Source of the DNA: Clostridiaceae bacterium
GTDB lineage: Bacteria; Bacillota; Clostridia; Oscillospirales; Acutalibacteraceae
Assembly: GCA_016282855.1 (NCBI GenBank)
Contig: JAEELT010000096.1
Location: 1-35,372, forward strand
Reading direction: 5' to 3'
DNA length: 35,372 bases
Positions 4,297 to 35,372 of the stretch are shown in pieces (positions within the stretch are counted from its first letter, which is position 1; each line of letters opens with the position of its first letter). The notes under the pieces were generated by a model. The model did not search any database and was not told the origin of the DNA. It worked only from the letters and a program-made list of their open reading frames with translations. Both the position numbers and the translations under genes were made by a program.

Positions 4297-7200
4297 TTAA
4301 TACTCGAATACTCCCTCGAATGACATTACGGCGGAGCCGGTAAGGGTAACCTTTTCGTCGGTGTAATTCACAATCACATCGCCTCCGGCAAGCTTTACGG
4401 TGATGTCTCTGCCTTTTTCGCAAAGACCCTTTTCGCACGCTGCCACAACACTTGCGCACGCGCCTGTGCCGCAGGCAAGAGTTTCGCCGTTGCCTCTCTC
4501 CCAGACTCTCATACGGATATTCGTCTTATTGATAACCCTGACAAATTCCGTGTTGATTCTGTGAGGGAAGGCTTTGTTGGTCTCAAATTCGGGGCCGATT
4601 TTCTGAAGGTCAAGACCGTCTATGCCTTCAACAAATGTTACATAGTGGGGATTGCCGACATCAACGCAGGTGCCGGTGTATTCCTTGCCGTCAACAGTTA
4701 CCGCCTTATCGGTTTCGGTTATGACAGCCTTGCCCATATCGACTCTTGCCGAGGTGACCTTGCCGTCACGCACAAAGAGTCTGAGCCTCTTTACACCGCT
4801 GGCCGTTTCGATGCTGACATATTCGTTTCTGTGGTAGCCCTTGTCATAGAGGTATTTGCCGACGCAGCGGATATTGTTGCCCGCCATCTTGCCTTCGGAG
4901 CCGTCACGGTTGAAGTGGCGCATCTTAGCGTCCGCAACGGTTGATTTTTCTATAAGCACAATGCCGTCGCCGCCTATGCCGTAATGCTGTCTGCAAAGGC
5001 TCACGCACAGTGACTCGGGGCAGGTAATCTTGCCGTCGAAATTCTCAACGAAAATGTAGTCATTGCCGCACGAATGCATCTTGGCAAAGGGTATCTCAAG
5101 GCGCCTTGTACGCATATCGTTGATGTCAACAAGCTCGGTATTCTTGCCGGTGAATCCGCTCTCTATGATTTCAGCGAGAGCGTTCGCGGTGTCAAGCGAG
5201 GTAAGGCAGGGAATGCTAAGTTGCATTGCTCTGAGGTGAATTCCGTTATATTCCTCTACTGTGGCGTCATTTACGGCTCCGGTGTAAATTATATAATTCA
5301 CATTGCCGCTCTCCATAAGGCTGATTATTTCCTTATTGCCTTTTGTAATGGGAACGGAAACCACATCAATACCCAGAGAGCCGATAACATCGGCGGTTTC
5401 GGTGGTGGCGTAAATAGTTATATCCTGGTCGGCAAAGCGCTTTGCAAGAGAAATAACCTCCTCGAAATCGTGCTTGTCAACGCTGATGAGCACGCCCGCG
5501 GATTCATTCTTGGAAGGCACTTTGAAGCCGGCTGCCGCAAGGCCCTTGAAGAGCGCCTCAGCGGGAGTTTTGCCAAGGCCGAGCACCTCACCTGTCGATT
5601 TCATTTCGGGGCCGAGAATTGAGTTGGCGTCATTGAGCTTCTCAAATGAGAACACGGGAACCTTGACTGCCGTGTAGGGAGGAGTGCAGTAAAGGCCTGT
5701 GCCGAAGCCCATTTCGGCAAGCTCCTCGCCGAGCATTACTCTTGAGGCGAGGTCAACCATGGGAACATTTGTGACCTTGCTTATGTAAGGAATGGTACGG
5801 GAAGCTCTGGGATTAACTTCAATAACATAAAGCTCATCTTCATATATAAGATACTGGATGTTGACCAGACCCTTTGTGCCAAGGGCGAGCGCGAGCTTTT
5901 CGGAGCAGTCGCAAACTTTTTTGAGGAACTTGTCATTGAGGTTATACGGAGGATAAACCGCTATGGAGTCGCCGCTGTGGACGCCGGCTCTTTCGATATG
6001 CTCCATAATACCGGGGATAAGAACATCCTTACCATCGGAAATAACATCAACCTCAAGCTCTATGCCGGGCATATATTTATCGATGAGCACGGGGTTGTCA
6101 ATACCGCCGGAGAGGATTTTTTCCATATAAGCGACGGTATGCTCCCTGTCGTGCGATATGGTCATATTCTGACCGCCTATAACATAGGAAGGTCTGAGAA
6201 GCACGGGATAGCCGAGAGTTTCGGCAGCCTGAATTGCTTCCTCAAGCGTGTTTACGCCCATTCCCTTGGGCCTGCTGATGCCGAAGGTTTCAAGCAGAGC
6301 GTCAAACCTGCTTCTGTCCTCGGCAAGGTCAATGCCGTCGGCGGACGTGCCCAGAATGGTGATGCCCGCTTTATCGAGGAAGGAGGTGAGCTTGATTGCC
6401 GTCTGACCGCCGAACGCCACAACCACGCCTATGGGTTTCTCAACCTTTATAATGTTCATAACATCCTCGGGTGTGAGAGGCTCGAAATAAAGACGGTCCG
6501 CGGTATCATAGTCTGTGGAAACGGTTTCGGGGTTGTTGTTTACGATAACAACATCGTAGCCCAGGTCTCTGAGAGTCCACACGCAGTGAACCGAGCTGTA
6601 ATCGAACTCAATACCCTGACCTATACGGATGGGACCCGAGCCGAGAACCATAATAACGGGCTTGCCGCTTCTCTTGAAGGTGCGCGCTTCACACGCTTTG
6701 TCGCAGCAGGAGTAGAAATAAGGTGTCTGCGCGTCAAACTCGGCTGCGCAGGTGTCAACCATCTTGTAGCTGAAATCCATTGAAGGAATGTTCTCAACGC
6801 CGGAAATGCGTTTTATGGCGGCATCGGTGTAACCGAGCTTCTTGGCCTTCATATAGATTTCGTCATCGACAACGCCTTTTGCAAGGATTTCCTCAAAATC
6901 AACAAGGTTTTTGATTTTATAAAGGAACCAGCGGTCAATCTTGGTGATATCAAAGATTTCATCAATCGAAACGCCGCTCTTTATCGCCTCAAATACTGTG
7001 AAGATTCTTCTGTCATCCTGTTTGGCAAGGCGCACTCTCACGGGCTCATCCGTAAGAGGCGGAGCGTTGAGGGTGTCAAAGGAGATTTCAGCTCCCCTGA
7101 CCGCCTTAAGAAGGGCGGATTCAAAATTCTGCCCTATGGACATAACCTCGCCCGTCGCTTTCATCTGGGTGCCGAGCTTTCTGCTCGAGCCGGCAAACTT

Positions 7201-8289
7201 GTCAAAGGGCCACTTGGGGAACTTGCAGACAATGTAGTCAACAGCGGGCTCGAAGCAGGCGCAGGTCTTGCCCCTGATGTCATTCTGAATCTCATCAAGA
7301 TTGTAGCCGATAGCTATCCTCGTGGTGATTTTGGCTATGGGATATCCGGTAGCTTTTGATGCGAGAGCCGATGAACGGGAAACCCTGGGGTTCACCTCAA
7401 TAACAGCGTATTCAAAGCTGTCGGGGTTGAGCGCGAACTGGCAGTTGCATCCGCCTACGATGCCGAGCGCCTCAACCATATCGAGAGCCGCTGAGCGGAG
7501 CATCTGATACTCTTTGTTTGAGAGAGTAAGAGCGGGAGCGACAACTATCGAATCGCCCGTATGAATACCTACGGGGTCAACATTCTCCATAGAGCAGATT
7601 GCTATGGCGTTGCCGTTAGCGTCTCTCATGGTTTCAAACTCTATCTCTTTCCAGCCGGAAATACACTTTTCAACAAGAATCTGTGTGATGGGTGAAAGGT
7701 CAAGACCTGTTTTTGCTATAACGGCAAGCTCCTCGGCATTGTCGGCTATACCGCCGCCGGTGCCGCCGAGCGTGAAAGCGGGCCTTACGATTACCGGGTA
7801 GCCGATTTCATCCGCGACTTTAAGAGCGGTTTCAATGTCTTCCGCTATTTCGGAGGGAACACAGGGCTGATTGATGCTCTTCATTGTGTCTCTGAACATT
7901 TCCCTGTCTTCGGCCTTGTTTATGGCATCTATGTCGGAGCCGAGCAGACGCACGCCGTATTTTTTAAGCGTGCCGTTCGCTGTGAGCTGCATGGCGATTG
8001 TAAGACCGGTCTGACCGCCCAGACCTGCAAGCAGGCTGTCGGGGCGTTCTTTTTCAATTATCCTTGCGACTGTTTCGGCGTTTAGCGCCTCAAGATAAAT
8101 CTCGTCGGCAAGGTTTTTATCGGTCATAATGGTAGCGGGGTTGGAGTTTACGAGCACGGTGTTTATGCCTTCGGCTCTGAGCACGCGGCACGCCTGGGCG
8201 CCGGCATAGTCAAACTCCGCCGCCTGACCGATTACGATGGGACCCGAACCGATAACAAGCACTTTGCGAATGGCTGAATCTTTAGGCAT
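4297..8289 (-). CDS. carB-dapF fusion: Fusion: carbamoyl-phosphate synthase large subunit (N-terminal ~1058 aa) + diaminopimelate epimerase-like domain (C-terminal ~272 aa)
   Basis: CarB hallmarks (VLVIGSGPIVIGQAAEFDYAGAQACRVLRAEG, VNSNPATIMTD, second ATP-grasp half IMVLGSGPIRIGQGIEFDYSSVH, MGS-like C-term) running in frame into DapF-like RRLEIPFAKMHSCGNDYIFVENF...HYGIGGDGIVLI...RDGSEGKMAGNNIRC...GNGETLACGTGACA. Confidence 0.93.
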   Translation of the reverse strand: MPKDSAIRKVLVIGSGPIVIGQAAEFDYAGAQACRVLRAEGINTVLVNSNPATIMTDKNLADEIYLEALNAETVARIIEKERPDSLLAGLGGQTGLTIAMQLTANGTLKKYGVRLLGSDIDAINKAEDREMFRDTMKSINQPCVPSEIAEDIETALKVADEIGYPVIVRPAFTLGGTGGGIADNAEELAVIAKTGLDLSPITQILVEKCISGWKEIEFETMRDANGNAIAICSMENVDPVGIHTGDSIVVAPALTLSNKEYQMLRSAALDMVEALGIVGGCNCQFALNPDSFEYAVIEVNPRVSRSSALASKATGYPIAKITTRIAIGYNLDEIQNDIRGKTCACFEPAVDYIVCKFPKWPFDKFAGSSRKLGTQMKATGEVMSIGQNFESALLKAVRGAEISFDTLNAPPLTDEPVRVRLAKQDDRRIFTVFEAIKSGVSIDEIFDITKIDRWFLYKIKNLVDFEEILAKGVVDDEIYMKAKKLGYTDAAIKRISGVENIPSMDFSYKMVDTCAAEFDAQTPYFYSCCDKACEARTFKRSGKPVIMVLGSGPIRIGQGIEFDYSSVHCVWTLRDLGYDVVIVNNNPETVSTDYDTADRLYFEPLTPEDVMNIIKVEKPIGVVVAFGGQTAIKLTSFLDKAGITILGTSADGIDLAEDRSRFDALLETFGISRPKGMGVNTLEEAIQAAETLGYPVLLRPSYVIGGQNMTISHDREHTVAYMEKILSGGIDNPVLIDKYMPGIELEVDVISDGKDVLIPGIMEHIERAGVHSGDSIAVYPPYNLNDKFLKKVCDCSEKLALALGTKGLVNIQYLIYEDELYVIEVNPRASRTIPYISKVTNVPMVDLASRVMLGEELAEMGFGTGLYCTPPYTAVKVPVFSFEKLNDANSILGPEMKSTGEVLGLGKTPAEALFKGLAAAGFKVPSKNESAGVLISVDKHDFEEVISLAKRFADQDITIYATTETADVIGSLGIDVVSVPITKGNKEIISLMESGNVNYIIYTGAVNDATVEEYNGIHLRAMQLSIPCLTSLDTANALAEIIESGFTGKNTELVDINDMRTRRLEIPFAKMHSCGNDYIFVENFDGKITCPESLCVSLCRQHYGIGGDGIVLIEKSTVADAKMRHFNRDGSEGKMAGNNIRCVGKYLYDKGYHRNEYVSIETASGVKRLRLFVRDGKVTSARVDMGKAVITETDKAVTVDGKEYTGTCVDVGNPHYVTFVEGIDGLDLQKIGPEFETNKAFPHRINTEFVRVINKTNIRMRVWERGNGETLACGTGACASVVAACEKGLCEKGRDITVKLAGGDVIVNYTDEKVTLTGSAVMSFEGVFEY

Positions 8290-18666: not shown

Positions 18667-19449
18667 TTATTCTGTTCTGTAAGCCATTACCGCGAAGCGC
18701 CCGTTTTGCGTATGATAACTGCAGGTTGAGAGTATCAGAATCTGCGCTCTGCTCTGCGGCGGTGTGCCGATATCGATTTCGGATTTTTCAAGCATTCCGG
18801 AAAGTATGCGGTAATATTCCTCATCACTGAAATTGCCTACATTGTCAAAATAACGGTATTCGTTTTTTGAATTCACCTTTGTGCGCAAAGCCGCAAACAC
18901 GCGGTAAACCCGTTTGCCTTCAGGTGTTTCGAAAATAATGTCACGGTGCTGCGCCGCCCAATCGGCGCCTGCGAATTTATTAAGAGTGCCGAACATTGAG
19001 CCGGTTTTCATATTATGACCGTAAATGATGAAAATATCGGAGTTTTCATCGCAGCCCTCTCCTATGAAAGGCGTGCCCGAGTAAGAATAATTCTTATCAA
19101 AATCACGGTGAAGGTAAAACTGCGGGTCTTTTGCGGGGGGCATAACAACAGGATAATCAATGTCGGTATCCGGCAATGTGAGCCAGCCTCTGAAATCCGC
19201 GTTGCTTTCAATGAGAGGAGCGTATTTTATTGCCGGGTTATACTCTTCCGGGTTTTCATTATCATTTTGGCTTACAATACGGCGGTATTCGGAAAACCTG
19301 CTCTGCTCCTGCTTCTGAGGAAAGTAAACGGAAAAGGCTTTATAAAGCGACACGGCAAGCACGGCGGTAAAAGCCACCGCAAGAAGCGCAAGCACGGCCG
19401 TTCTGGTTCTTATCCGTTTTTCCGTAATACCATCCCCTTTCATAAACAT
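18667..19449 (-). CDS. Class B sortase (accessory/pilus)
   Basis: N-terminal TM; DTDIDYPVV, FIIYGHNM (His), LSTCSYHTQNGRFAVMAYR (Cys, Arg). Confidence 0.92.
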   Translation of the reverse strand: MFMKGDGITEKRIRTRTAVLALLAVAFTAVLAVSLYKAFSVYFPQKQEQSRFSEYRRIVSQNDNENPEEYNPAIKYAPLIESNADFRGWLTLPDTDIDYPVVMPPAKDPQFYLHRDFDKNYSYSGTPFIGEGCDENSDIFIIYGHNMKTGSMFGTLNKFAGADWAAQHRDIIFETPEGKRVYRVFAALRTKVNSKNEYRYFDNVGNFSDEEYYRILSGMLEKSEIDIGTPPQSRAQILILSTCSYHTQNGRFAVMAYRTE

Positions 19450-19466
19450 AACAGATTATCAGACCG

Positions 19467-22400
19467 TCAGCCATTATACGCTCTGCGTTTTCTGATGATA
19501 ATGAGCACAAACGCCGCAAGGCTCAGCAGGGCAAGCAGCGCCGGAGCAATACTGATGCTGCCGTCAAACACGCCTGTGGGTATGGGCGTATCCAGGCGGT
19601 TAATAATATCGAGCGCAGTATCCCCTGAAAGGCGGAAGGTTTTGGTGCTTACATTTTCCGCCTGTTCTTCACCGAGAGTGAAGGTGGTGTTATAGCCCTC
19701 GTTTGCCTCGGTTACGGTTATATCGGTGCCCTTGGGCAGCATAATGGTCACGGTATCATTATGAGCGAGCGTAAAAGTGCCGCCGCTGTGAAGGGCGTTA
19801 GTCTGAGTTGCTCCGTTCTTAGTCCACTGATATTCATCCGAAGGATTTGCGCCGTCAACAGTCAGGGTGAAGGTAAAGGGCTTTACTCTGTTGCCGAAAG
19901 AGCCGGTTACCGTTTTGGTAACCGTAAGCAGAGCTGCATTATCCGAGGGAGTATTGGGAACGGTGATGGTGTAGTTTCTGATATCCTCTCCCTGTACGCT
20001 CAGATAGTTTCCGTGGCCGGTGCTGTTTATAAGCACCTCCCCCGTTTCCGTGATGGTGAATATTATATCCTGCGTAATCTGCTCATAGCCTACCGGCGGG
20101 TCGGTTTCGGTCAGATAATACTTGCCGTGACCAAGGGAGGCATTAACAAGAGGAATAATGCCGTCTGAACCCGTAACGAGCGTTTCATAACCGGGCATCG
20201 GAGCAAGGTCCTTTACAAGGCCGCCTATGCCCATAACGCTTCTGTACAGGGCAAAACGGGCGCCCTCGAGAGGCTGATGAGTATTAGCATCTGTTTTGAC
20301 AGCCCGCAAAGTAAACTGCTCATTGTAGATATCAATATAAGCAATGAGCTTATCGCCGGCGATATCAGATTTTCTGCCTGTCTGCCATTTTGCCTCGTTT
20401 CCGCTGACGGTTACAGTATCATCATTGGCTATTGAGAAAACGGCGGCATTGGGCAGGCCGGCATACCCTACGGGAGGAGTCTGCTCGGTAAGGCTGTAAT
20501 TCACATTACGCTCAAAATCATAAAGAATCGTTACCCTGCCGTGGGAATCAGACGTGAATGTGCCTATGGTATCGCTGCCCTGCTCAAGGGTAAACGCGCC
20601 GTTTGCGAGAGGCTCGTGTGTGTGCATATCGTACAGGGTGATTACAACGCCGCCGGTACGCAGGTTGGTAATGGTATCGGTCCTGACGTTTTTAAGCTGT
20701 GATTCGGGAGTGTCGGTGGACACGGGAGCACCTACGGTATATTCAACGCTGTATGAATAAACCGCGGAAGTGTCTGAATTCGCCGGCACGGCGCTTATTG
20801 CGGTAAGGTCGCCGTCATTGAGCTTTCTTGATATGCTGTCAAAGGTAACATTTTCGTTTGCATCGGTGCCGGGATTTACAAGCTCAACCTCGTGCACGCT
20901 GTAATCGGCGAAGGTAAAGCCGGTAATGATGCTGTCAAAGAAATAGCGGGTGCCCGCGTCAGGGCCGTAGAGCATTCTGACTGTGCCGGGAACAAGGGTA
21001 TTGCCCGCATAAACCGCCACATAAACCGGGTCGTGGGATTTTGTGAAGCTTGCGTCACTCCACTGTTTATTGACATCAAGGCCCCAGCCGCGCTTGTTTT
21101 TAACATACATTTTGGGCGACTCATTAGCTCTGACCCAACCTGAATTGATGGTGTCGCCGTCCTCGGCGTGGTAGGTTCCGCTTTCGCGCTCATACTCAAC
21201 AAAAGTGTAACCGAGAGGTATTTCATTCTCCCTTTCAATGAGCATGAATCTGGTGCCTACGGCAACATTGGGCACATGCACGGTATAGCCTGCGGGTATC
21301 TTTGAAACAGCGCCGTTCATTGATGTTTCAAAGGTGAACATTCCTTTCTCGGACGCGGTCAGGGAATCATAATCCGTAAGGGCAGTGGGTACAAGCCTGC
21401 CGGAATCCGCATCCCACCTGCAAAGGTGACCTTCGGCGGAATCATCCGTAACAAAGTACCTGACCATGTTTGCGGCGGTGAGGTTATCGTCTGAACCGTT
21501 TGAAAGATAAAGCCTGTAATTGAATACTGATTTATCCTGCTGAGCACTGAGCGGATTGCCGGACTCATCGTACAGCTTTTTCTCAATGCTGACGGTACGA
21601 AGAGAATCGGGATCAACATGGTTTTCAAAAACGATTGAAGGCTGCTGGGCAACACTGTGCCAGCCGGAATTATATGAGCTTCTGCCGGAGCCCGGGATTG
21701 ACTCGGGAGAAACAGCGTTGCCGTTTACTTTGACCGAATCATAAACTTCATCGTTTACTCCGCACTCAACGATTTTATACTCGATGGTATTCATCGGGAA
21801 ATGAACCTCGGCGCTCTTGCCCGGGTTGAGCAGATAGACCGAGTTATATGGAACCGAGCTGTTTGGCGGAGTATAAACGGGAAGATAATCAATCCTCTGG
21901 GTTGAATTCTGATAGGTAACATTGATTAAGCTGTTATCATTTGTAAGCAGATGCTCAGTTCCTGTTTCCTCATCCTTATACCAGATCTGATAGGGGTACT
22001 CAACAAGGTTGAAATCAAGGTCATCGGAACCCGTCACCGTTTTTGTGAGCATGACATTACCGGGGGTAACATTACTCAGGTTAAAACGCATATGAAGATT
22101 TGACGCACCTGCGCCTCTCTCCATATAGAATATTGTCATCTTATGGGTGGTGTAAGGCCTGAATACCGTTGACTCCCCTTCGAAATACTCGGCAAGGTAA
22201 TTGTTTATCTCCTGCTCACTCGCATTGGGATTCCTTGAAACATAGTTTTCACGGAATATCTGCCGCAGGGTCTTTCTGGTGCCTTCAACATTAACCATAC
22301 CGGATGAGAAGTTACAGCTGCCCTGAAGCGCGGAGTGAATACCGCCAAGATCAATGATAAGCTCGCCGTCAACATAGAACCAGAAGTCGTCATCGCCGGT

Positions 22401-25091
22401 GAATTCAAAAATAATATCGTTGCCCCAGGCATCCTTACCGTTGGGAGTCTGCGTCAAAACGGCAGTCATCTCCATACCGTTATAATAGTTGGGCGAGGTT
22501 ATCTTATGAAGCTTTTCGTGTTTTCTCGGGTCTGAGTCGGGCAGCAGACCTTTTTCGGGCTTATTGTACTGAGCAAGGGCACTGTAAAGGTTTTCCGGGT
22601 TGTTTTGTGTGCAGTAAACCCCTGCGCTGATATTGTTGTAGGGCATAAACTGACCGTGCTTAAGGGTGCTCCTTGAGCTTTCATCCATAGTTCCGAGCTC
22701 TCTGTAAACCGTGAAATCGGTGCCTATGGTGCCGTCCGGCTTAACAAGAGTGGCATAATTCTGGCAGCTGTCAAACTCATAATAGCCGCTCGCGTTATAT
22801 GTGCTTTCAAGGAAGAGATGGTTAACTGTTTTAGTCTGACTCTCTGTGAAGAGACCTGCAAGGGAGCCGCCCGCGGCAGTCGGATATCCGTCATTACCCA
22901 GGTTGGTTGAAAGAAGGCCTTTGGTTGCCGCCGTCAGGTTTGAGACGGATGAACCCAGGAAGGTATTCTGAACATCGGGCGAAGAGAAGTCAATCATCTT
23001 CATCTCTATTCCGTACTGACTGTTGTCAATGGTATTTACCGTGGTGAGAGTTGAAGACGTGTTGCGGACCGTTGCAAAATAGAAAGTATCGGCATCAGAC
23101 TTCGGCCCGGACACAATACGGCCGTTGGCAATATCCGACTGCAGACCGGAATAAGCATAGTAAGGATCATCCCAGGCAATTATGCCGGAATAATAGTCAC
23201 CCCATACTCTTCCCGGAAGGTTAATGCCTATTTTATTATCTGAAAGGGTCTGACCGTCTTTAATCTGAGGCGCAATATATTTCCTTGAGTAGGGATTATA
23301 AAGCTCATAATAATTATTGGGTGTGCCGTCTTCATAAGTGTACTCGGTGAAATCCCATAAGAGCGTGTTTATCTGATTGCCGACCCACATGATTTCATCG
23401 CCGCGCTCAAAGCAGGGATAGAGTGTGCCGTCATGATCTATGGCATAAAAATCATAACCGTTTGTTCTGCTGTTCCACACGCGGGTATAGACAATTACGT
23501 TTGCGCCGTCGGGAACATCCGAGATGCTGATTTTATCCGCGTGGTATGTAACATAATCGGTCTGGCTGAGAGTTGAGGGTTTAACTATATGAAGCCACTG
23601 GGCCGTACTGCCCGAGGCTGTGTTCTGACTTTCAAACTCCGTGCCGTTGAATGCCACGGATTTGCCGGCGCATGAAAAGCTGAGCTGATTGCTGCTGTTT
23701 GAATTGATAACGATTTCAGATGCCTGCTGCAAATCAACAAGAGAAAGAGTGCTGCCTATATTGAGATATTTGGTTACTCCTTCAACCTCGGTCGAAATAT
23801 AGTATTTGCCATTACCGAGATAAGTGAAACTCCATATTGTTATATCGGCGTTATCGGCAACATAAAGGGTTTCAGTGCCGATTTCTTTACGCACGGTAAG
23901 AGACATCATTGAAAGAGTGTTGTTATTCTCATCCGCCATAAAGCCGTAGCCCTGAGTGCCGCCGGGGTAGCTCATAAGCCCGAAGCTTGTGCCGTCAAGA
24001 TGCAGATAATCAACCGACTCACCCGGCCCGTAATCAATGCCTATCTGTGAGTTGACGGCGTTATTGTTATCGGTGTAGTACCTTATGCCTTTGCCTCCGT
24101 TGGAGTGCTGAAGCCACTTGCTCTCACCGCTCTGCCTGAAATAGAAGGTGTGGTTTGCGGCATTGGCAACGCTGATTTCAATAAGGTCTGCGGAGGCCTC
24201 ATCGCCCAGCCCGATATTATTGCCGGATTTTGTGTAAATATATTTTTCGGCATTGCCGATAACAGTGTAAATCTTATAAACATACCCCGTGTTGCCGACT
24301 TTTTTGAAATGCCAGATTGCCGCATCGAGAACCGATGCCGATTCGGCAAGCACGGAATTGCTGCCGCTGACATTAACAGTGCTTGTGAAATATGTTTTAT
24401 TGCCGTAGTACAGGCGGAATCCTGCGGAAGAAGAGCTGCCTGTAAGCTCATCCTGAGAGCTGACCGAGCCGTTATCGACCGGCTGAGCAATATCCACTAT
24501 GGCATAAACGCTGAAGCCTTCGGCGGCAAAGGAGAGCCTGCCCTGCTGCGCGGAAAATGCGGACATGGCTTCATAAGTACCGTCGTCCTTGATATGAATA
24601 AGCTGCAGCTTTCCGCTGCCGGGAATATCCGAATCCGTTATTTCAACATTAACGGGATTGATGAACCCCGGCTGATACTCATTGCCGCCGCTGGTGATTG
24701 TGATATCATAAGCGGCAATAACCCTTGCCCAGGGAATACCCGGCAGAATATCCGGCCCGGACAAATTGTCTGCATAGTCCCCGGTAACATCAACCGCCTG
24801 TGCACGGGCGTCGTCGGGCATAATGCCGCTCAGCTCAATCCTGTCGCCCGGGTCGCCTGATTCAGGATGAACCGAGAGGCTTATACTGTCATAGCAGGCG
24901 GCAGAACTGTCGCCGCTGTCTGCGCTTGACACAGGCGCTGCAACACCGGCAAATATGCCCGAGATGAGTGAAAGGATAAGAAGCATAATCAGGGCATCGG
25001 CAAGTGCCCTGCGGCCGTTTTTAATCAGAGCACCGGCTGAGGAGAGCGTGCGTCTGAAGAGCATATTCTGTTTTCTGTTTCCGGATTTCAT
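19467..25091 (-). CDS. Giant pilus tip/adhesin-type surface protein (1874 aa): fibro-slime/PA14-like domain, SpaA/CnaB-like domains, FctA-like repeat, IPTGV sorting signal
   Basis: DIIFEFTGDDDFWFYVDGELIIDLGGIHSALQGSCNFSSG (fibro-slime-like); KTDANTHQPLEGARFALY...YYLTETDPPVGYE (SpaA); C-term PIPTGV-TM-RKRR. Confidence 0.88.
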   Translation of the reverse strand: MKSGNRKQNMLFRRTLSSAGALIKNGRRALADALIMLLILSLISGIFAGVAAPVSSADSGDSSAACYDSISLSVHPESGDPGDRIELSGIMPDDARAQAVDVTGDYADNLSGPDILPGIPWARVIAAYDITITSGGNEYQPGFINPVNVEITDSDIPGSGKLQLIHIKDDGTYEAMSAFSAQQGRLSFAAEGFSVYAIVDIAQPVDNGSVSSQDELTGSSSSAGFRLYYGNKTYFTSTVNVSGSNSVLAESASVLDAAIWHFKKVGNTGYVYKIYTVIGNAEKYIYTKSGNNIGLGDEASADLIEISVANAANHTFYFRQSGESKWLQHSNGGKGIRYYTDNNNAVNSQIGIDYGPGESVDYLHLDGTSFGLMSYPGGTQGYGFMADENNNTLSMMSLTVRKEIGTETLYVADNADITIWSFTYLGNGKYYISTEVEGVTKYLNIGSTLSLVDLQQASEIVINSNSSNQLSFSCAGKSVAFNGTEFESQNTASGSTAQWLHIVKPSTLSQTDYVTYHADKISISDVPDGANVIVYTRVWNSRTNGYDFYAIDHDGTLYPCFERGDEIMWVGNQINTLLWDFTEYTYEDGTPNNYYELYNPYSRKYIAPQIKDGQTLSDNKIGINLPGRVWGDYYSGIIAWDDPYYAYSGLQSDIANGRIVSGPKSDADTFYFATVRNTSSTLTTVNTIDNSQYGIEMKMIDFSSPDVQNTFLGSSVSNLTAATKGLLSTNLGNDGYPTAAGGSLAGLFTESQTKTVNHLFLESTYNASGYYEFDSCQNYATLVKPDGTIGTDFTVYRELGTMDESSRSTLKHGQFMPYNNISAGVYCTQNNPENLYSALAQYNKPEKGLLPDSDPRKHEKLHKITSPNYYNGMEMTAVLTQTPNGKDAWGNDIIFEFTGDDDFWFYVDGELIIDLGGIHSALQGSCNFSSGMVNVEGTRKTLRQIFRENYVSRNPNASEQEINNYLAEYFEGESTVFRPYTTHKMTIFYMERGAGASNLHMRFNLSNVTPGNVMLTKTVTGSDDLDFNLVEYPYQIWYKDEETGTEHLLTNDNSLINVTYQNSTQRIDYLPVYTPPNSSVPYNSVYLLNPGKSAEVHFPMNTIEYKIVECGVNDEVYDSVKVNGNAVSPESIPGSGRSSYNSGWHSVAQQPSIVFENHVDPDSLRTVSIEKKLYDESGNPLSAQQDKSVFNYRLYLSNGSDDNLTAANMVRYFVTDDSAEGHLCRWDADSGRLVPTALTDYDSLTASEKGMFTFETSMNGAVSKIPAGYTVHVPNVAVGTRFMLIERENEIPLGYTFVEYERESGTYHAEDGDTINSGWVRANESPKMYVKNKRGWGLDVNKQWSDASFTKSHDPVYVAVYAGNTLVPGTVRMLYGPDAGTRYFFDSIITGFTFADYSVHEVELVNPGTDANENVTFDSISRKLNDGDLTAISAVPANSDTSAVYSYSVEYTVGAPVSTDTPESQLKNVRTDTITNLRTGGVVITLYDMHTHEPLANGAFTLEQGSDTIGTFTSDSHGRVTILYDFERNVNYSLTEQTPPVGYAGLPNAAVFSIANDDTVTVSGNEAKWQTGRKSDIAGDKLIAYIDIYNEQFTLRAVKTDANTHQPLEGARFALYRSVMGIGGLVKDLAPMPGYETLVTGSDGIIPLVNASLGHGKYYLTETDPPVGYEQITQDIIFTITETGEVLINSTGHGNYLSVQGEDIRNYTITVPNTPSDNAALLTVTKTVTGSFGNRVKPFTFTLTVDGANPSDEYQWTKNGATQTNALHSGGTFTLAHNDTVTIMLPKGTDITVTEANEGYNTTFTLGEEQAENVSTKTFRLSGDTALDIINRLDTPIPTGVFDGSISIAPALLALLSLAAFVLIIIRKRRAYNG

Positions 25092-25127: not shown

Positions 25128-25988
25128 TTATGAATCCTTTTCTTCTTTGCTCTTTTTACTGTTTATGAGTTTACGGCAGTCAGCCGCGTATATGATTGAA
25201 AGAACCAGAAGACCCGCCGAAGCTATCATTGCGATAAGAAAATATACTTCCATACCGGTATCATCGCTTGTTTTTGGGTTGCTTTTGTCCGGAGGAGCCG
25301 GAGTATCGTCCCCGACAGGGGCTGTTGTTTCTTCAGGTTCGGTTTGGTCGCTTCTGCCCCGGGGTGAAGTAGTTCTTTCCGGCGCATCGGGGCGGTTTCT
25401 GCGGTCCGGTTTAGTTGTGGTTACGGGAGCAGGCGGAGTGATGCCGCCCGGAGCTGTTGTTTTTTCGGGAGTGGCGGGAGTTCTGCCTCCCGGTACCGGG
25501 GTCGGTACAACAGGTATGGGAATAACGCCCGGTGATGTGGTCTCTTCATGCCCGGGATTCATATTCACAAACAGAATTGTTCCGGGGCTGCTGCTTCCGG
25601 GATCGCCCGCGTATTTTACGCCGTTTGCATAAATGAGAGTCACCGCAGAGAGCTTGCCGTTTTCATCCGTAACATATACCTTTACGGTATAAACGGTGCT
25701 GTCAAAATTAAGCTTACGGGAATCCGGTACCGTTTTTACGGTGTAGGCATAAACTCCGGGCTCGGTGAATTGTATATTAAACCGTCCCTCTTCCCCGTCT
25801 TCAAGCTCAAGCTCGGTTTTGTCGGGGATAGGGCAGTTGACTTCCGGTATTATTATGGCTTTGCCGCCCTGTTTAATTACAACCGTTGCCTGTGCGCCGA
25901 CAGGTTCATAGGCCGAAGCGCAAAACGAGGCATTGACAATCAACGGTATTGCGGCAAGCAAAAAGATAACAGTTAATAGCTTTTTCAT
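25128..25988 (-). CDS. FctA-domain anchor/basal pilin with Pro/Thr-rich stalk and NPKTS sorting signal
   Basis: Signal peptide; TEPGVYAYTVKTV FctA-like motif; TTAPGG/TTSPRG Pro-Thr-rich region; NPKTSDDTG-TM-basic tail. Confidence 0.82.
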   Translation of the reverse strand: MKKLLTVIFLLAAIPLIVNASFCASAYEPVGAQATVVIKQGGKAIIIPEVNCPIPDKTELELEDGEEGRFNIQFTEPGVYAYTVKTVPDSRKLNFDSTVYTVKVYVTDENGKLSAVTLIYANGVKYAGDPGSSSPGTILFVNMNPGHEETTSPGVIPIPVVPTPVPGGRTPATPEKTTAPGGITPPAPVTTTKPDRRNRPDAPERTTSPRGRSDQTEPEETTAPVGDDTPAPPDKSNPKTSDDTGMEVYFLIAMIASAGLLVLSIIYAADCRKLINSKKSKEEKDS

Positions 25989-25992
25989 TTAA

Positions 25993-26709
25993 TCAATCCG
26001 GGATTTCGGTAAGAACACCGAAAACAATAATTCTTTCATAGCTTTCTGCCGATTGGCAGGTGGATAATCCAATGATTTTTGACCGGTCTGCAGCTGTGCC
26101 GGGGTAATATACGGCGGATTTTTCCGCCAGATAATCAAGGAGCTCTTCGTTGCCGGTTTCATCGGGGCTGAAAACAGTTTTTTCGGTTGCCTGGGCTTTG
26201 CAGGCGGCGAAAAGCTCAATATTATAACTCTTTCCGGTTAATGTGATAAGTGTGCCCGCCCTGTGGGCGTCAAAATATGACCTGTCCGCAAACGCATCAA
26301 GGGAGCCGAACATTGCGCCGTACTCCATATGATGGCCGTAAACAAGGGAGTAATTGTCGGTAAAATCCTTGCTGTTTCTGAAATCAAGAAAAATACTGCC
26401 TGACAGGGCAAAATTGCCGTAGGGGTCTTTATTGAGATACTCCTCATTGGTTTTACCCTGCATAACGGGATAATCAATTTCTGTGTCATCAACGGTCAGC
26501 CAGGCAACAGCGTCCTCGGATAACTCCGCAAGAGCTTCGGGGTGGCTCAGATCAGGCTTGAATCTGAGAATATCCGAATTGTTGGCGCCGGAATAGACCA
26601 TATAGGCATCAATCATCGCGTAGAGACAAATCAGGAAGAATATGAGAGAAATGACAGCCACAATACGGTCAAAGCTCTTATTAAGAAATATTACTGTTTT
26701 GCGTGCCAT
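25993..26709 (-). CDS. Class B sortase, pilus polymerase candidate
   Basis: DTEIDYPVMQG, LVYGHHM (His), LSTCQSAESYERIIVFG (Cys, Arg). Confidence 0.92.
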   Translation of the reverse strand: MARKTVIFLNKSFDRIVAVISLIFFLICLYAMIDAYMVYSGANNSDILRFKPDLSHPEALAELSEDAVAWLTVDDTEIDYPVMQGKTNEEYLNKDPYGNFALSGSIFLDFRNSKDFTDNYSLVYGHHMEYGAMFGSLDAFADRSYFDAHRAGTLITLTGKSYNIELFAACKAQATEKTVFSPDETGNEELLDYLAEKSAVYYPGTAADRSKIIGLSTCQSAESYERIIVFGVLTEIPD

Positions 26710-26887: not shown

Positions 26888-28144
26888 TTATTCTTCGTAA
26901 AATGCTGATTTTTTCTTTTTGCTGATGATGAAGATAATAATTGCTCCGAAGAGTAACATGCCTATAGCAAAGGGAGCAACAGCCATAATAACGCCGGTGG
27001 GGATAATACCGTCGCGGGTATTTGTGAATGCAACCGCTATGGTGTTTGCGTCATCTTCGTCAATGGTACCTGCCGCCTGATGGTCTGCGGTGATAACAGC
27101 CTCGCCGGTATCGGTGCCGTTAAGCTTATCGCCGGTAACAGCTGTCGCGGGCTTATAATCCTCTTCATCCTCAAGCACGTTGTAGCCGGCGCCGATGGGC
27201 AGGCCGTTGATGCTTATAGTCTGGCCGTGCTTAAGATAGAATACCTGAGTTACTGTTGTGGCACCTGCGGGAACAACAAGGGAAGCAGGCTGCACATAAT
27301 CGGCTGAGCCGTTGAGAGCGGCAATGGTGGTAGCCGCGTTGGGATTCTTGCTGATTGTGGCATCGGCGCCGCCGGTGGTGTAATCAACAGTGTAAGCGTT
27401 GCCCGCTGTTACGCCGCTGATTGTAACGGTAACGGCAAAATACTTGTCTCTTGATGCCTGGTTGCCGGCAACGGTCTTTGAAAAGCTGAGTGTGCCTGTG
27501 GGATACTCATTGACAAAGCCGTCAACCTTGTCGGCAAGGGCAGTGCCGGCGGTAACGACATCACCCGAGCCGTAATCCTGGCTCTTGACCGGGGCGGCGT
27601 CATTTGTGTGAAGCACTGTACCGCTTACCGTAAGAACACCGGAGGCATCGCTTGTAACGTAAACATCAAGGTAAAGGGGATTTGCTTCAAGACCGACCGC
27701 TGTATCGGTTGAAGAAACTTCTCTGAGCTCAAAGCGGTAAACGCCGGGCTCTGAGAAGGTTACTGCGGAAAGATTGATGGTTGCGGTCTGCTTTGCATAT
27801 ATCTTGCCTGAGGGAAGGGTAAGGATATCGCCGCTCTGAACGGCATTATATGTGGTATCGGTGGGCGTAAAGGTCACAGTGTTCACGGTAGCGCCCTGGG
27901 GGCCGGCGTAAACTGCCATATGGGTGCTGTCCGCTGCCTTGGCAGTGCCGGGGAGAATGCTGAAGGTTATTGTGGTGTTAGGCACATGCGCGTCGTCGGG
28001 AATAACAAGATACTTCTTGAAATTCACTGCGGCGGGGCCTGTAACAGGGGTGTTGGTAATTGCTGTGGATACGGGTGCCGCAAAGCTCATAACAAGTGCG
28101 AAAATCATGAGCACTGCAAGCGTGTTGAAAAATCTCTTCTTCAT
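26888..28144 (-). CDS. FctA-like major (backbone) pilin
   Basis: Signal peptide; FSEPGVYRFELREV; LSFSKTVAGNQASRDKYFAVTV; VAFTNTRDGIIPTGVIMAVAPFAIGMLLFGAIIIFIISKKKK, closely patterned on Streptococcus pyogenes FctA/Spy0128 (FTNKKDFEVPTGVAMTVAPY). Confidence 0.9.
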   Translation of the reverse strand: MKKRFFNTLAVLMIFALVMSFAAPVSTAITNTPVTGPAAVNFKKYLVIPDDAHVPNTTITFSILPGTAKAADSTHMAVYAGPQGATVNTVTFTPTDTTYNAVQSGDILTLPSGKIYAKQTATINLSAVTFSEPGVYRFELREVSSTDTAVGLEANPLYLDVYVTSDASGVLTVSGTVLHTNDAAPVKSQDYGSGDVVTAGTALADKVDGFVNEYPTGTLSFSKTVAGNQASRDKYFAVTVTISGVTAGNAYTVDYTTGGADATISKNPNAATTIAALNGSADYVQPASLVVPAGATTVTQVFYLKHGQTISINGLPIGAGYNVLEDEEDYKPATAVTGDKLNGTDTGEAVITADHQAAGTIDEDDANTIAVAFTNTRDGIIPTGVIMAVAPFAIGMLLFGAIIIFIISKKKKSAFYEE

Positions 28145-28202: not shown

Positions 28203-28769
28203 TTAAAAGCCTCTGCGGCGGAAAGAAAAAATAATGGGTCCGTCAACATTTTTCATATCAACCGAGCCAAAGGACCTGCTGTCATTTACATCCTCACGGT
28301 AATCATTCAGTATGAACACCTTTCCCTCTTCTACTTTGAAGGGGTATTCAATACCGGACTGTTCAGACGGATAAGTGGGATAATAAATATCCTCCGCAGC
28401 AACCATTCCGTTTACGAGAAGCTGACCGAAGCTGTTTATTTCAACGATGTTGCCGGGAAGGCCTACTACCCTGCCCACACACTTTTTGCCGCCGCTTTCA
28501 TACAGTACAGCAGCGTTGATGTAAGGACGCTGAAGCTTGAGTGAAATAACCAGGTCGCCGTCATTGATTGCAGGGTGCATATTATTGCCGTAATGGATAT
28601 TTACACCCAGCACGAATATAAGAGCAAGCGCAACCGTCAGCGCGGCAGCAGCAATTTTGACAATAAGGTTAACCGCAAGGCGATTTGTTGATATTTTTTT
28701 GCGAGGCTGCGCAGGCTTTTGGGGCAATTTGACCGAATCATTGTTTTGCTTAAACGATTCCCCGCTCAA
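28203..28769 (-). CDS. SipA-like signal-peptidase-I homologue, predicted catalytically dead
   Basis: SPase I fold motifs GNNMHPAINDGD, CVGRVVGLPGN, VFILNDYREDVNDSRSFG; Ser-to-Asn and Lys-to-Gly at the dyad; TTG start with AGGTGA RBS. Confidence 0.85.
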   Translation of the reverse strand: MSGESFKQNNDSVKLPQKPAQPRKKISTNRLAVNLIVKIAAAALTVALALIFVLGVNIHYGNNMHPAINDGDLVISLKLQRPYINAAVLYESGGKKCVGRVVGLPGNIVEINSFGQLLVNGMVAAEDIYYPTYPSEQSGIEYPFKVEEGKVFILNDYREDVNDSRSFGSVDMKNVDGPIIFSFRRRGF

Positions 28770-28830
28770 TTATTTCACCTACCTAAAAATACTTATATAA
28801 ACATTTATAAATATAAAAATGTGGTATTAT

Positions 28831-31101: not shown

Positions 31102-34100
31102 TTATTCTTCGGGTGTTTCCCCGTCTTTGCTTTTATTATCGCCGCTCTTTTTCGCTTTCTTTTTCATAATAACGGGTATCAGCACAGCGGGCACGGCCAG
31201 CGCAATTATGCCGAAGAACACTATACCGTTAAAAGCAGTAAACAGCGAACCTTCGCTATGATCCTGTATAAGCTTATTCACATCAAACACATTGCTGAAA
31301 ATGAGATTTGATGTTGCCATACGGGTCGGGAAATTCATATAAATCCAGCCGTAATACTGACCCCTCTGATAGCCGTAGGAATCAAGGAAAGTATTTATGC
31401 TGTCACTGCCGATGCCTGTTGCCAGCTCCTCGGGCGAACCGGAGAGCGGCCCGACAGTCAGAGGAGGAATAAGGCAGTCCGCATTGAAGCTGTAGTTATA
31501 GGTGGATGAATAAATCATTCTCACGTCGGCAATGAACTGCGATGAATCATAATTCTGACGGAAATCGAGCCCTGCGGACTTACTGAAGCACTCGGTGAGA
31601 TAGTCTATTTTGTCCCGGGCGCTCACATCGTAATGATCCTCTGTGAATTCGGCAAAGCGCCTCTCAACAAGGTAAACCTTGCCTGCCGCCTCGCCTACCG
31701 TGGGCATTTTCTGCTTTTCGCCGAGCACAACTATACGCGGGTCTTTTGCCGCCTGCTCAAGGACCTTTCCGAGAATAGTCGCGTAATAGCCTCCTACATC
31801 GTCACCCTCGCACTTGAAGGTAATGTAAACAGATTCGCTTTTGTTATTCTCAACAAAGGCGAGAGCTTCTTCAATCACATCTCTGAATGTGAGATTGGAG
31901 CCGTCAAGGTTACGGCAGTCCGCCATAGATACATCGTGGCTTGAATACTTTGAAAAGCCGAGCGCGCCGAGCGTTCCGTGGCAAAGCTTGAGAAAGCCCG
32001 CCTCATAAAGCAGGTCATCGCCCTTGAGCTCTTTATTGTCAAGGTCTTTGATTTTCCTGTTGGGGTCATAAATCATACGCACATCAAAGGTGCGTATGCC
32101 GGCGTTGAGCTGCTGCTCTACCGTAAGATTATTGCACTTTGCGAGCTCATCAACGATAAACTGAACAAGTTTTTCAAAGTTGAAGGCAATATATATCGCC
32201 CCTGCGATGATGAGCGGAAGTTTATTCATTATCAGAGAGAGGAGAGCCGGAATGGTGGTTGAGAAAAGCGGAGCGAGCGAAGCAATAATCTTAACCCAGT
32301 CAGGCAGCTTATCATCAACTATATTGACGAAATTATCAAGTATCACATCAATCATTTCCTGATTGAGCTTCACATTATATGTGCCCGTATCGTGAGTGCC
32401 GGGCATATTCACCTGAGAAATTGACGCATTCTGAGGAATATATTTCATCCAGTTGCGCGTTGTGACACCCTTGTAGCCGTCAATGCAGCTGAAGCTTGAA
32501 GGAATCATACCGTAGTAGTATTTCGCGTATTGGCTCAGACCGATTTTTTCGGTATATCCCCTTTCTGTGTCATAAGCGAAGGTGGCATATCTTGCGGTCA
32601 GGCAGTCAAGCACCGTGGTGTAGGAATAGTCTATCCTCTGGAGCGCCTCTGTCTTTTTTTTGTATTTTTCGGATGTGGGGTTATCTCTCGTGTAGCCGCT
32701 CTTGCGGTTATCGCCGAACGGCTCGCAGTAATGGACGGAATAAAGGATTTCGCCCATAAGCGCCTTCATATCATCGCTGATGTAAAGGCCGTTTTCCTGA
32801 GCGTATTTTTTCACGTTGGACCAGCAGGATTTAAGAATATCAAAAGGATTGCTGCCGTCGTCATACTTTTTCTTGATATACCTTCCGAAATAAGTGGTGA
32901 AAAGGTAAACATAACCGCCGCTTTTATCAATAAAATCCTTGTTCCACTCGTAGCCTTTTCTGTAAGCTCCGTTAAAGAAATCCCTTGTTTCAACGCCCTC
33001 CCGGCCGGTCATATCTATGACCTCCCAGCTTTCGGGCCCTTTTACGAGCGCGTTGTGATTGGCCACCTCGCGAAGAGCGTAATAAAGACGCTCGGAAGAG
33101 AGCTCGTCGACATAAGGCTTGCCGAGAATCATATCTGAATAGCCGCCTATATCTATGTCTCCGAGAAAGTCAACCGATAAATCCGCCCTGTGATAGAAGG
33201 AATCTCTGCCCGTCACATTAACGCTTGCGTAGTCTATGTAAACATCTCCGTTTTTGCCGCTGAGCTGAGCGGGTTTGCCCGCAGCTCCGCCGCCGGCTCC
33301 TCCGCCGCCGATGCCGTAGTCCGCAGCTTTGCCGGCACAGAACTCCGATGTTTCGCTCATGCCTTTGTCACCGGACTCGGCGTAGATGGTCAGAGTGCCC
33401 AGAATGTAAACTGTGCCGCAATCCGTGCCTCTTTCGGGAAGGTCGGATGAGTCTTTGATTCCCTTGCCGCCGCTGCCGCCGATACCGGCTCCCGCACCGC
33501 CGCCGGAGCTTGATTTTTCTCCCTCGTGGGCGTCACCGCCCAGGGCAGTGAGCGCCCCTGAGCCGCGGATAATCAGAGAAGAGCTCTCCGGCACATATAT
33601 GCCGGCGCCCGCTCCGTTAATTCCCTTGGCTCTGCCGCCCCTGAGAGAAACCTTTACACCCGTGGGAATATCAATGGTTATTTTGGCATTTTCCGGTATT
33701 GTAAGCGCGTTCTGACACGCGGGAGCGGTGTAAGACACGCTTTTTTCAAAGCGGTAATGCCCGTTATCCTCAAGCTCAAGGTCTTTTACATCCGTAACGG
33801 CCGTGGCGGAAACATCCGTAAATGAGCCGTCCTCATTGAGAGAGAATACGCCTCTTTCAATATCGCCCTCGAGCCTTCCGGTTATTGTTGTGTCATAGCC
33901 GGCATAGACTGTGCCGGAAACGCCGTCTGCCTTTTCAGGATGAGCTCCGCCGTTGCCGCCGTCGCCGCCCTTGAGATCGCCGAATCTGACACCTTCTTTG
34001 CCCTTTGAATAGGCGTCGCCGCCCTTGCCGCCTTTGCCGTAACCGTCGTGATCGTTATTCGGATATTCGGTGCTGCGTGTGCTGCCTGAGCCGCCACCGC

Positions 34101-35372
34101 CGCCTCCCGAGCCGCCGGGACCGCCTGCGCCTATGCCGTATGGGGCAGCTTCGCCGCCCGCGCCTGCACCGCCGCCGCCACCGCCGCCGGCGTAGTAATT
34201 ATCAGTATAGCCGGAGTCTTTGTCACGAGCCTTTGAGCCGCTTGAGCCGCTTGAGCCTTCAGCTCCGCCTTTGCCGGGCTCGGCGATAACCGAAACCTGC
34301 TCAAAAATACAGACATTTCCGCATTCTTCGCCCGACATACCCTTCCGGCCGTTTTTGCCGCTCTCACCGTCGCAGTCTCCCTCAGGATTCTCACAGGGAG
34401 AAGCGGGGTGGTCCGCTTTTTCACGGTAAAGATTTATTTCGCTGAGCTGCAGATAATCCTTTAATGTAAAATCAAATCTGAAATAGCTGTATTCTTCTGT
34501 ATTGTCGGTGCCGTAAGTGAATTCTCTGTAATCCTGCGCTGTCATCTGAGGGTCGTCCACTGACGAAACAAGGGTCCACTCAATATTATCCTTTGAGCCG
34601 TAAAGCGCCCAGCCGGAGGGCAGCCTGCCGTATCTGCTGTTGTCATCTGCGGTGACAAGGCCGTAGGATACGACCTTTTCGGGCTTTGATGTTCTCACGG
34701 CAATGCAGATTTTACCCTCTTTTTTTACGCAGCATTTTGTTTCGTCCTTGCTGTCAAAAAGATTGAGGGTGGTCTGCTTATCATAGCCCTGCTCCCCGCT
34801 CACAAGCACCGCGTTATTTATCTTTTCGCTGTAAGGGTAAGCAGTCTCACCGTTATCGGAGCCTTTATAAAGGCCGCCCTTGCCTCCTTTGCCGCCGTTA
34901 CCGCCCTTGCCGCCGATACCGGCTCCTGCTCCGCCGCCGCCTGCTCCGCCGCTGCCGCCGTTGCCGGCGTAAAAGATTCCTTCGCCGTCGCGGGAGTCTT
35001 TATCAAAGAGCGCGTTTTCGCCCTTTGCGCCGTTTTCGCCGTCAGAGGCGTTGCCGCCTGCAGCCTTCAGCGTGCCTTCACCCTTTATGATAAGAGTGGA
35101 TGATGCGGGAAGATATATTCCCGCACCCGCGCCTGCGGAAAAGACGGCATCGGCGCCTTTTGCCGTTACCGTGACTCCCTTTTCAATCTGAAGCACGACA
35201 GTCGAGAGCTCGGGCACGATTATTCCGCTGCCGGAGGGATGACTGTTTGTGAATGATAAATCTTTTTTGAAAACATAGGTCTTGCCGTTTTCAAGCAGAT
35301 AACCCGATTTGCTTCCGGCCACAACATCAACCGTGTTGTTTTTTGCCTCAAGCGCGCGGCCTTCCACAGTCG
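31102..35372 (-). CDS. Surface mosaic protein, 5'-truncated by window edge: Gly-rich repeat modules, F5/8C-like insert, PI-PLC-like phosphodiesterase domain, C-terminal TM anchor
   Basis: SQVNMPGTHDTGTYN, QLNAGIRTFDVRMIYD, LKLCHG (PI-PLC X-type); GSGGAGGGGAGAGIGGKGGNGGKGGKGG; PSGWALYGSKDNIEWTLVSS...YFRFDFT (F5/8C-like); frame stays open to the window end. Confidence 0.82.
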   Translation of the reverse strand, partial: TVEGRALEAKNNTVDVVAGSKSGYLLENGKTYVFKKDLSFTNSHPSGSGIIVPELSTVVLQIEKGVTVTAKGADAVFSAGAGAGIYLPASSTLIIKGEGTLKAAGGNASDGENGAKGENALFDKDSRDGEGIFYAGNGGSGGAGGGGAGAGIGGKGGNGGKGGKGGLYKGSDNGETAYPYSEKINNAVLVSGEQGYDKQTTLNLFDSKDETKCCVKKEGKICIAVRTSKPEKVVSYGLVTADDNSRYGRLPSGWALYGSKDNIEWTLVSSVDDPQMTAQDYREFTYGTDNTEEYSYFRFDFTLKDYLQLSEINLYREKADHPASPCENPEGDCDGESGKNGRKGMSGEECGNVCIFEQVSVIAEPGKGGAEGSSGSSGSKARDKDSGYTDNYYAGGGGGGGAGAGGEAAPYGIGAGGPGGSGGGGGGSGSTRSTEYPNNDHDGYGKGGKGGDAYSKGKEGVRFGDLKGGDGGNGGAHPEKADGVSGTVYAGYDTTITGRLEGDIERGVFSLNEDGSFTDVSATAVTDVKDLELEDNGHYRFEKSVSYTAPACQNALTIPENAKITIDIPTGVKVSLRGGRAKGINGAGAGIYVPESSSLIIRGSGALTALGGDAHEGEKSSSGGGAGAGIGGSGGKGIKDSSDLPERGTDCGTVYILGTLTIYAESGDKGMSETSEFCAGKAADYGIGGGGAGGGAAGKPAQLSGKNGDVYIDYASVNVTGRDSFYHRADLSVDFLGDIDIGGYSDMILGKPYVDELSSERLYYALREVANHNALVKGPESWEVIDMTGREGVETRDFFNGAYRKGYEWNKDFIDKSGGYVYLFTTYFGRYIKKKYDDGSNPFDILKSCWSNVKKYAQENGLYISDDMKALMGEILYSVHYCEPFGDNRKSGYTRDNPTSEKYKKKTEALQRIDYSYTTVLDCLTARYATFAYDTERGYTEKIGLSQYAKYYYGMIPSSFSCIDGYKGVTTRNWMKYIPQNASISQVNMPGTHDTGTYNVKLNQEMIDVILDNFVNIVDDKLPDWVKIIASLAPLFSTTIPALLSLIMNKLPLIIAGAIYIAFNFEKLVQFIVDELAKCNNLTVEQQLNAGIRTFDVRMIYDPNRKIKDLDNKELKGDDLLYEAGFLKLCHGTLGALGFSKYSSHDVSMADCRNLDGSNLTFRDVIEEALAFVENNKSESVYITFKCEGDDVGGYYATILGKVLEQAAKDPRIVVLGEKQKMPTVGEAAGKVYLVERRFAEFTEDHYDVSARDKIDYLTECFSKSAGLDFRQNYDSSQFIADVRMIYSSTYNYSFNADCLIPPLTVGPLSGSPEELATGIGSDSINTFLDSYGYQRGQYYGWIYMNFPTRMATSNLIFSNVFDVNKLIQDHSEGSLFTAFNGIVFFGIIALAVPAVLIPVIMKKKAKKSGDNKSKDGETPEE

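What the first reader, a model, noticed from the sequence alone, without database searches (positions are those of the whole stretch)
28203..28769. Pseudo-signal peptidase: both catalytic dyad residues replaced
SPase I box B (G-x-S-M-x-P) reads G-N-N-M-H-P, with Asn (AAT, 28581-28583) for the nucleophile Ser. Box D (K-R-V-x-G-L-P-G) reads G-R-V-V-G-L-P-G, with Gly (GGC, 28473-28475) for the general base Lys. Box E keeps DSR.FG but GDNR became NDYR. S. pyogenes SipA, needed for pilus polymerisation, likewise lacks both dyad residues (Asp and Gly). This suggests a non-proteolytic pilus chaperone conserved far from streptococci, with a different Ser replacement.
Basis: partly seen in the sequence, partly recalled or inferred. 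Interest (0 to 1): 0.7.

Follow-up and report, generated by a model that had tools for sequence, protein, structure and literature searches.

The report
SipA-type dead signal peptidase, pilus operon
This gene encodes a signal-peptidase look-alike that has lost its cutting residues and very probably helps a class B sortase build pili, a clostridial relative of the known Streptococcus pyogenes SipA protein; the same gene cassette turned up across gut Clostridia, Erysipelotrichia and Coriobacteriia.

Summary
ORF 28203-28769(-) is a type I signal peptidase fold with Asn63 (AAT, 28581-28583) for the nucleophile Ser and Gly99 (GGC, 28473-28475) for the base Lys. It is a SipA homologue by sequence, predicted fold and tree: best PDB hit S. 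pyogenes SipA (4n31; 38-39% identity, TM 0.92), and it falls in a SipA clade that includes that protein. It heads a cassette sipA-fctA-srtB(class B)-fctB, the gene order of the S. pyogenes FCT pilus region. A census found 77 distinct SipA-like proteins in Clostridia, Erysipelotrichia, Streptococcus and Coriobacteriia. Lys is never present at the base position (Gly, Arg, Ala or Leu). The nucleophile position has drifted through 11 residues, with at least 24 changes on the tree, so "a different Ser replacement" carries no meaning. All 54 adjacent sortases scanned match class B. Intact-dyad signal peptidases sit in class C sortase pilus loci instead. A C-terminal R-x-R-x-[ILF] tail marks 72/77 SipA-likes and 0/54 canonical peptidases. 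Most likely function: non-proteolytic, membrane-anchored pilus assembly factor. The mechanism is inferred from S. pyogenes, where it is itself unresolved. New member of a known kind, with a broader range than the literature I found.

The parts
28203..28769 (-). SipA-like pseudo signal peptidase, 188 aa, TTG start
   Evidence: PF10502, TIGR02227, PDB 4n31 E 2.5e-22; AF2 model pLDDT 89.9, Foldseek top hit SipA TM 0.92
28581..28583 (-). AAT, Asn63 at the SPase nucleophile (Ser) position
28473..28475 (-). GGC, Gly99 at the SPase general-base (Lys) position
   Evidence: never Lys in 77 SipA-likes
28296..28307 (-). Box E N-D-Y-R (canonical G-D-N-R); Asn occurs only where the base position is Gly or Ala
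28206..28220 (-). C-terminal R-R-R-G-F tail, SipA-clade signature R-x-R-x-[ILF]
   Evidence: 72/77 SipA-likes versus 0/54 canonical SPases
28611..28688 (-). single predicted N-terminal membrane helix, residues 28-53
   Evidence: AF2 model secondary structure; hydrophobic segment in the sequence
28776..28784 (-). AGGTAGGTG, Shine-Dalgarno-like site
   Evidence: sequence
26888..28144 (-). FctA-like major pilin, 418 aa, IPTG sorting motif near the C terminus, no YPK pilin motif
   Evidence: PF24547, weak TIGR03786; weak PDB matches to S. pyogenes T-antigen pilins; motif scan
25993..26709 (-). class B sortase, 238 aa; nearest solved structure 3psq (chain title 'hypothetical exported protein')
   Evidence: TIGR03064 173 bits, cut-off 153.75; 3psq E 1.5e-42
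25128..25988 (-). FctB-like basal pilin, 286 aa, NPKTS sorting motif
   Evidence: PF12892, TIGR03786
19467..25091 (-). 1874-aa putative tip/ancillary adhesin with fibro-slime domain and C-terminal IPTG sorting motif
   Evidence: TIGR02148, weak NF033396; sequence
18667..19449 (-). second sortase gene, just downstream of the adhesin
   Evidence: PF04203

Best explanation
The gene encodes a membrane-anchored, catalytically dead type I signal peptidase homologue, orthologous in kind to S. pyogenes SipA/LepA, and works as an assembly factor for pili polymerised by a class B sortase. Shown here: fold, dyad loss, clade membership, cassette and purifying selection. Inferred from S. pyogenes genetics: it is needed so that the class B sortase, which lacks the lid of class C pilin sortases, can join FctA-like pilins. 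Inferred further: it holds a pilin (its signal-peptide or sorting-signal region) or the sortase next to the membrane, and its working surface is not the old active site but other conserved parts (the cleft and the membrane-proximal R-x-R-G C-terminal tail).
For: Best sequence match SipA. AF2 model pLDDT 89.9; Foldseek hits 1-3 are all SipA (TM 0.83-0.92 by target), with true SPases lower. SipA clade 100/99 support including S. pyogenes SipA, unchanged when catalytic columns and tail are removed. Cassette: 57/57 non-redundant loci with enough downstream sequence have an FctA-like gene within 4.5 kb, 56/57 a pilus-type sortase, 52/57 an FctB-like gene. 54/54 adjacent sortases match the class B model TIGR03064. 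In 391 Clostridia genomes, all 13 with a sortase of at least 255 bits to the pilus model also have SipA. SipA and sortase distances correlate, r = 0.90. Base position never Lys, nucleophile changed at least 24 times. Intact-dyad SPases lie in class C sortase pilus loci. The genome has two tandem intact-dyad SPases elsewhere (C112), so secretion does not need this protein. sipA deletion abolishes pili in S. pyogenes, and SipA shows no peptidase activity (PMC4049620).
Against: No experiment on this organism. 28 of 77 relatives keep Ser at the nucleophile position. Young et al. report SipA homologues with an apparently intact dyad in S. suis and S. agalactiae (PMC4049620). In vitro binding of SipA to FctA, sortase or peptides was not detected in S. 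pyogenes. The FctA-like match is weak at sequence level (E about 1e-5 to 1e-3 to solved T-antigens).
Confidence: 0.85

Rival explanations
1. A pilin-specific peptidase using a non-canonical mechanism (for example a Lys next to the old site, or substrate-assisted catalysis).
For: The peptide-binding cleft fold is kept. Lysines 95 and 96 lie near the old base site in this protein.
Against: No conserved Lys, His or Cys anywhere in 77 relatives. Nucleophile position takes 11 residue types. In S. pyogenes the double mutant of the Asp and the nearby Lys still polymerises pili and no cleavage was seen (PMC4049620).
Confidence: 0.06
2. A degenerate leftover of a pilus-linked signal peptidase with no present function.
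For: Loss of dyad residues.
Against: dN/dS 0.12-0.15, single-clade retention across phyla, 57/57 operon linkage, conserved tail.
Confidence: 0.02
3. A decoy or regulator that binds signal peptides and restrains the true signal peptidase so that pilin precursors stay membrane-bound until the sortase acts.
For: Keeps the SPase fold and single membrane helix, and lies in the pilus operon. The genome has two canonical SPases.
Against: No direct evidence. S. pyogenes SipA did not bind signal-peptide fragments in vitro, although only truncated proteins were tested (PMC4049620).
Confidence: 0.07

Closest known systems
SipA/LepA of the S. pyogenes FCT-2/3/4 pilus region (PDB 4n31, 4k8w)
   Same: Fold, Gly at the base position, Asn at box E (NDYRE), DSR, R-x-R-G tail, one N-terminal membrane helix, gene order sipA-fctA-class B sortase-fctB, pilins without YPKN motif
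   Different: Asn instead of Asp at the nucleophile position; about 38% identity; adhesin gene at the end of the cassette rather than before sipA; found in Clostridia
C. perfringens VR-10B (NE) pilus locus (PMC8088525)
   Different: In the passages read, that paper does not discuss the dyad of the signal peptidase; its sequence was not compared here
Canonical type I signal peptidases (LepB, SpsB)
   Same: Peptidase_S26 fold, boxes B-E recognisable
   Different: Ser-Lys dyad absent; box E Gly is Asn; C-terminal region ends R-x-R-G-[IFL] instead of the canonical W/F-P-containing end
Intact-dyad signal peptidases of class C sortase pilus loci (L082, L083 here)
   Same: SPase-fold protein encoded in a pilus locus
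   Different: Dyad kept in L081-L083 and L085; sortase is class C in L082 and L083; outside the SipA clade

Membership tests
SipA/LepA pilus assembly factors | Type I signal peptidase fold, closest to SipA | tested here: met
SipA/LepA pilus assembly factors | Ser and Lys of the dyad both absent | tested here: met
   Asn63 and Gly99
SipA/LepA pilus assembly factors | Groups with S. pyogenes SipA in a tree | tested here: met
   clade 100/99, also without catalytic columns and tail; S. pyogenes SipA has a long branch, so its place inside the clade is less sure
SipA/LepA pilus assembly factors | Encoded with FctA-like pilin and class B sortase | tested here: met
SipA/LepA pilus assembly factors | Required for pilus polymerisation, no peptidase activity | not testable with these tools
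   needs experiment; shown for S. pyogenes (PMC4049620)
Active type I signal peptidase (S26) | Ser-Lys catalytic dyad | tested here: not met
Class B sortase | Neighbouring sortase scores above the TIGR03064 cut-off | tested here: met
   173 bits versus 153.75

The most novel reading that the evidence does not exclude
SipA is a general partner of one distinct, pilus-polymerising subclass of class B sortases in at least two phyla. It arose once from a signal peptidase by loss of the base Lys, and its functional surface moved from the old active site to the membrane-proximal C-terminal R-x-R-x-[ILF] tail, which contacts the sortase, the pilin or the membrane.
Probability: 0.3. Interest if true: 0.6.

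Novelty: new member of a known kind. Interest (0 to 1): 0.42.

Why it matters
Why S. [quoted passage not shown] A broad set of relatives turns this into a comparative problem. It shows which residues may vary (the old nucleophile site) and which may not (no Lys at the base position, the Arg tail, DSR, P66-I68-x-D-G-D-L), and it ties the protein to one sortase subclass. The current NCBI model for signal peptidase I (TIGR02227) scores this protein above its cut-off, so it and proteins like it are liable to be annotated as active signal peptidases.

Tried and rejected
Whole-genome download was not available. The idea that Asn has a special role was rejected because the position is unconstrained. 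An alternative Ser-Lys pair was looked for and not found. The idea that every class B sortase comes with SipA was rejected: of ten further class B sortase regions fetched with lower scores (172-187 bits), none shows SipA, and two of them (L187, L191) have the sortase next to FctA-like proteins; in one of the ten (L188) the sortase itself was hidden by the simple gene caller. A first script failed on a naming error. Using L146 directly as a search centre failed and was replaced by G447.

Full report
WHAT IS THERE. The ORF at 28203-28769 (minus strand, 188 aa, TTG start preceded by AGGTAGGTG) encodes a type I signal peptidase homologue (PF10502; TIGR02227).

CLOSEST RELATIVE. Against all solved structures the two best hits are the two S. 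pyogenes SipA entries (4n31 E 2.5e-22, 4k8w E 6.7e-21), well ahead of real signal peptidases (best 4e-8). The AlphaFold2 model made from 64 homologues (pLDDT 89.9) matches SipA 4n31 with TM 0.92 by target length, 1.9-2.0 A and 38-39% identity. E. faecalis and B. anthracis signal peptidases reach 0.70 and 0.61.

OPERON. Downstream on the same strand lie an FctA-like pilin (26888-28144, IPTG sorting motif), a class B sortase (25993-26709, above the TIGR03064 cut-off, nearest solved structure 3psq), an FctB-like pilin (25128-25988, NPKTS motif) and a 1874-aa adhesin (19467-25091). sipA-fctA-class B sortase-fctB is the order given for S. pyogenes FCT types 2-4 (PMC4049620), except that the adhesin gene there comes first. 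The 71 FctA-like proteins next to SipA lack a match to the YPK pilin motif scanned, as reported for S. pyogenes FctA (PMC7900414). A second cassette in the same assembly (contig C43, L005) has an 87% identical SipA. Since another gene pair at 78% identity also occurs and the bin has 4.35% estimated contamination, it could be a second strain.

CENSUS. The class-level genome search, the named scan of 84,980 species (its pattern starts after the nucleophile, so it does not select on the dyad) and the first relatives search gave 77 distinct SipA-like and 54 canonical proteins. The SipA group was defined by score to a SipA profile and confirmed by tree. Canonical: Ser 53/53 readable, Lys 52, Arg 2. 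SipA group: the base position is Gly 59, Arg 13, Ala 3, Leu 2, never Lys; the nucleophile position is Ser 28, Asn 12, Ala 10, Asp 10, Gly 8, Glu 3, Phe 2, and one each of Gln, Lys, Arg, Thr. Asn at box E occurs only where the base is Gly or Ala (39 and 1), which fits the steric argument in PMC4049620. The tree puts the SipA group, with S. pyogenes SipA inside, on one side of a 100/99 branch. This holds when the catalytic columns and the tail are removed. The nucleophile needs at least 24 changes within the clade, the base 6. The S. pyogenes branch is long, so its exact place is unsure.

LINKAGE. Of 57 non-redundant loci with at least 3.5 kb downstream, 57 have an FctA-like gene, 56 a pilus-type sortase and 52 an FctB-like gene nearby. 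54 of 54 adjacent sortases match TIGR03064. Among 391 Clostridia genomes the sortase profile shows a gap between at least 255 bits (13 genomes) and at most 197 bits. All 13 have SipA; the fourteenth SipA genome (G411) has its sortase at 197 bits. One partial sortase (G351:C18) lies too near a contig end to judge. The profile was built from SipA-adjacent sortases, so this shows that the subclass is distinct and that no SipA-free member was seen, not more. Distances of SipA and sortase correlate at r = 0.90 over 47 loci, as expected for a cassette inherited as a unit. As a natural control, signal peptidases in pilus loci with class C sortases (L082, L083) keep Ser and Lys (these loci were picked by their score to the window protein, so they are a small sample).

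RANGE. Besides Clostridia, members occur in the isolates Sharpea azabuensis and Streptococcus hyointestinalis and in a Holdemanella MAG. They also occur in 12 of 150 genomes of the class around a Coriobacteriia MAG; the 12 proteins checked all lack Lys and nearly all carry the Arg tail. Many are MAGs, but the number makes contamination an unlikely general cause.

MECHANISM. Shown: dead dyad, conserved fold, purifying selection (dN/dS 0.12-0.15), tight linkage. Known for S. pyogenes: SipA is essential for polymerisation, has no peptidase activity, and its Asp and nearby Lys are dispensable (PMC4049620). Inferred: the same role here. New lead: the C-terminal R-x-R-x-[ILF], present in 72/77 and absent from 54 canonical proteins, follows the last strand (E175-183), which in SipA belongs to the membrane-associated sheet (PMC4049620). 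It is a candidate contact site and is testable.

VERDICT. The Ser replacement itself is not informative. The existence of dyad-less SipA and its class B sortase link were known in streptococci, and a clostridial pilus locus with a 'signal peptidase' and class B sortase is described for C. perfringens (PMC8088525). The breadth, the single loss of Lys, the drift of the nucleophile and the tail signature were not found in the papers searched here, which cover open-licence papers only.

Noticed in passing
4297-8289 (-): Carbamoyl-phosphate synthase large subunit fused to diaminopimelate epimerase in one 1330-aa ORF, beside carA and an ornithine/aspartate carbamoyltransferase gene; full-length fused ORFs occur in several other genomes of the genus and order, while other genomes have the synthase part alone.
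   Followed up: partly
L005 (contig C43) 4032-11878: Second sipA-fctA-srtB-fctB cassette in the same assembly, SipA 87% identical; may be a true second operon or a co-binned strain (a second copy of the CarB fusion at 78% is also present).
   Followed up: partly
L089 5834-8537: Two divergent sipA cassettes lie in tandem; the first sipA belongs to a different branch and lacks the exact tail motif.
   Followed up: no
L020, L011: Two signal peptidases of the canonical group have Arg at the base Lys position while keeping Ser.
   Followed up: no
31102-35370 (-): Very large Gly-rich surface protein without Pfam hits whose C-terminal half contains a GTHDTGTY...HG pattern reminiscent of phosphatidylinositol-specific phospholipase C domains, then a C-terminal membrane segment.
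   Followed up: no
L187 and L191: SipA-free loci with a different class B sortase next to FctA-like repeat proteins: a possible class B sortase surface system without SipA.
   Followed up: partly
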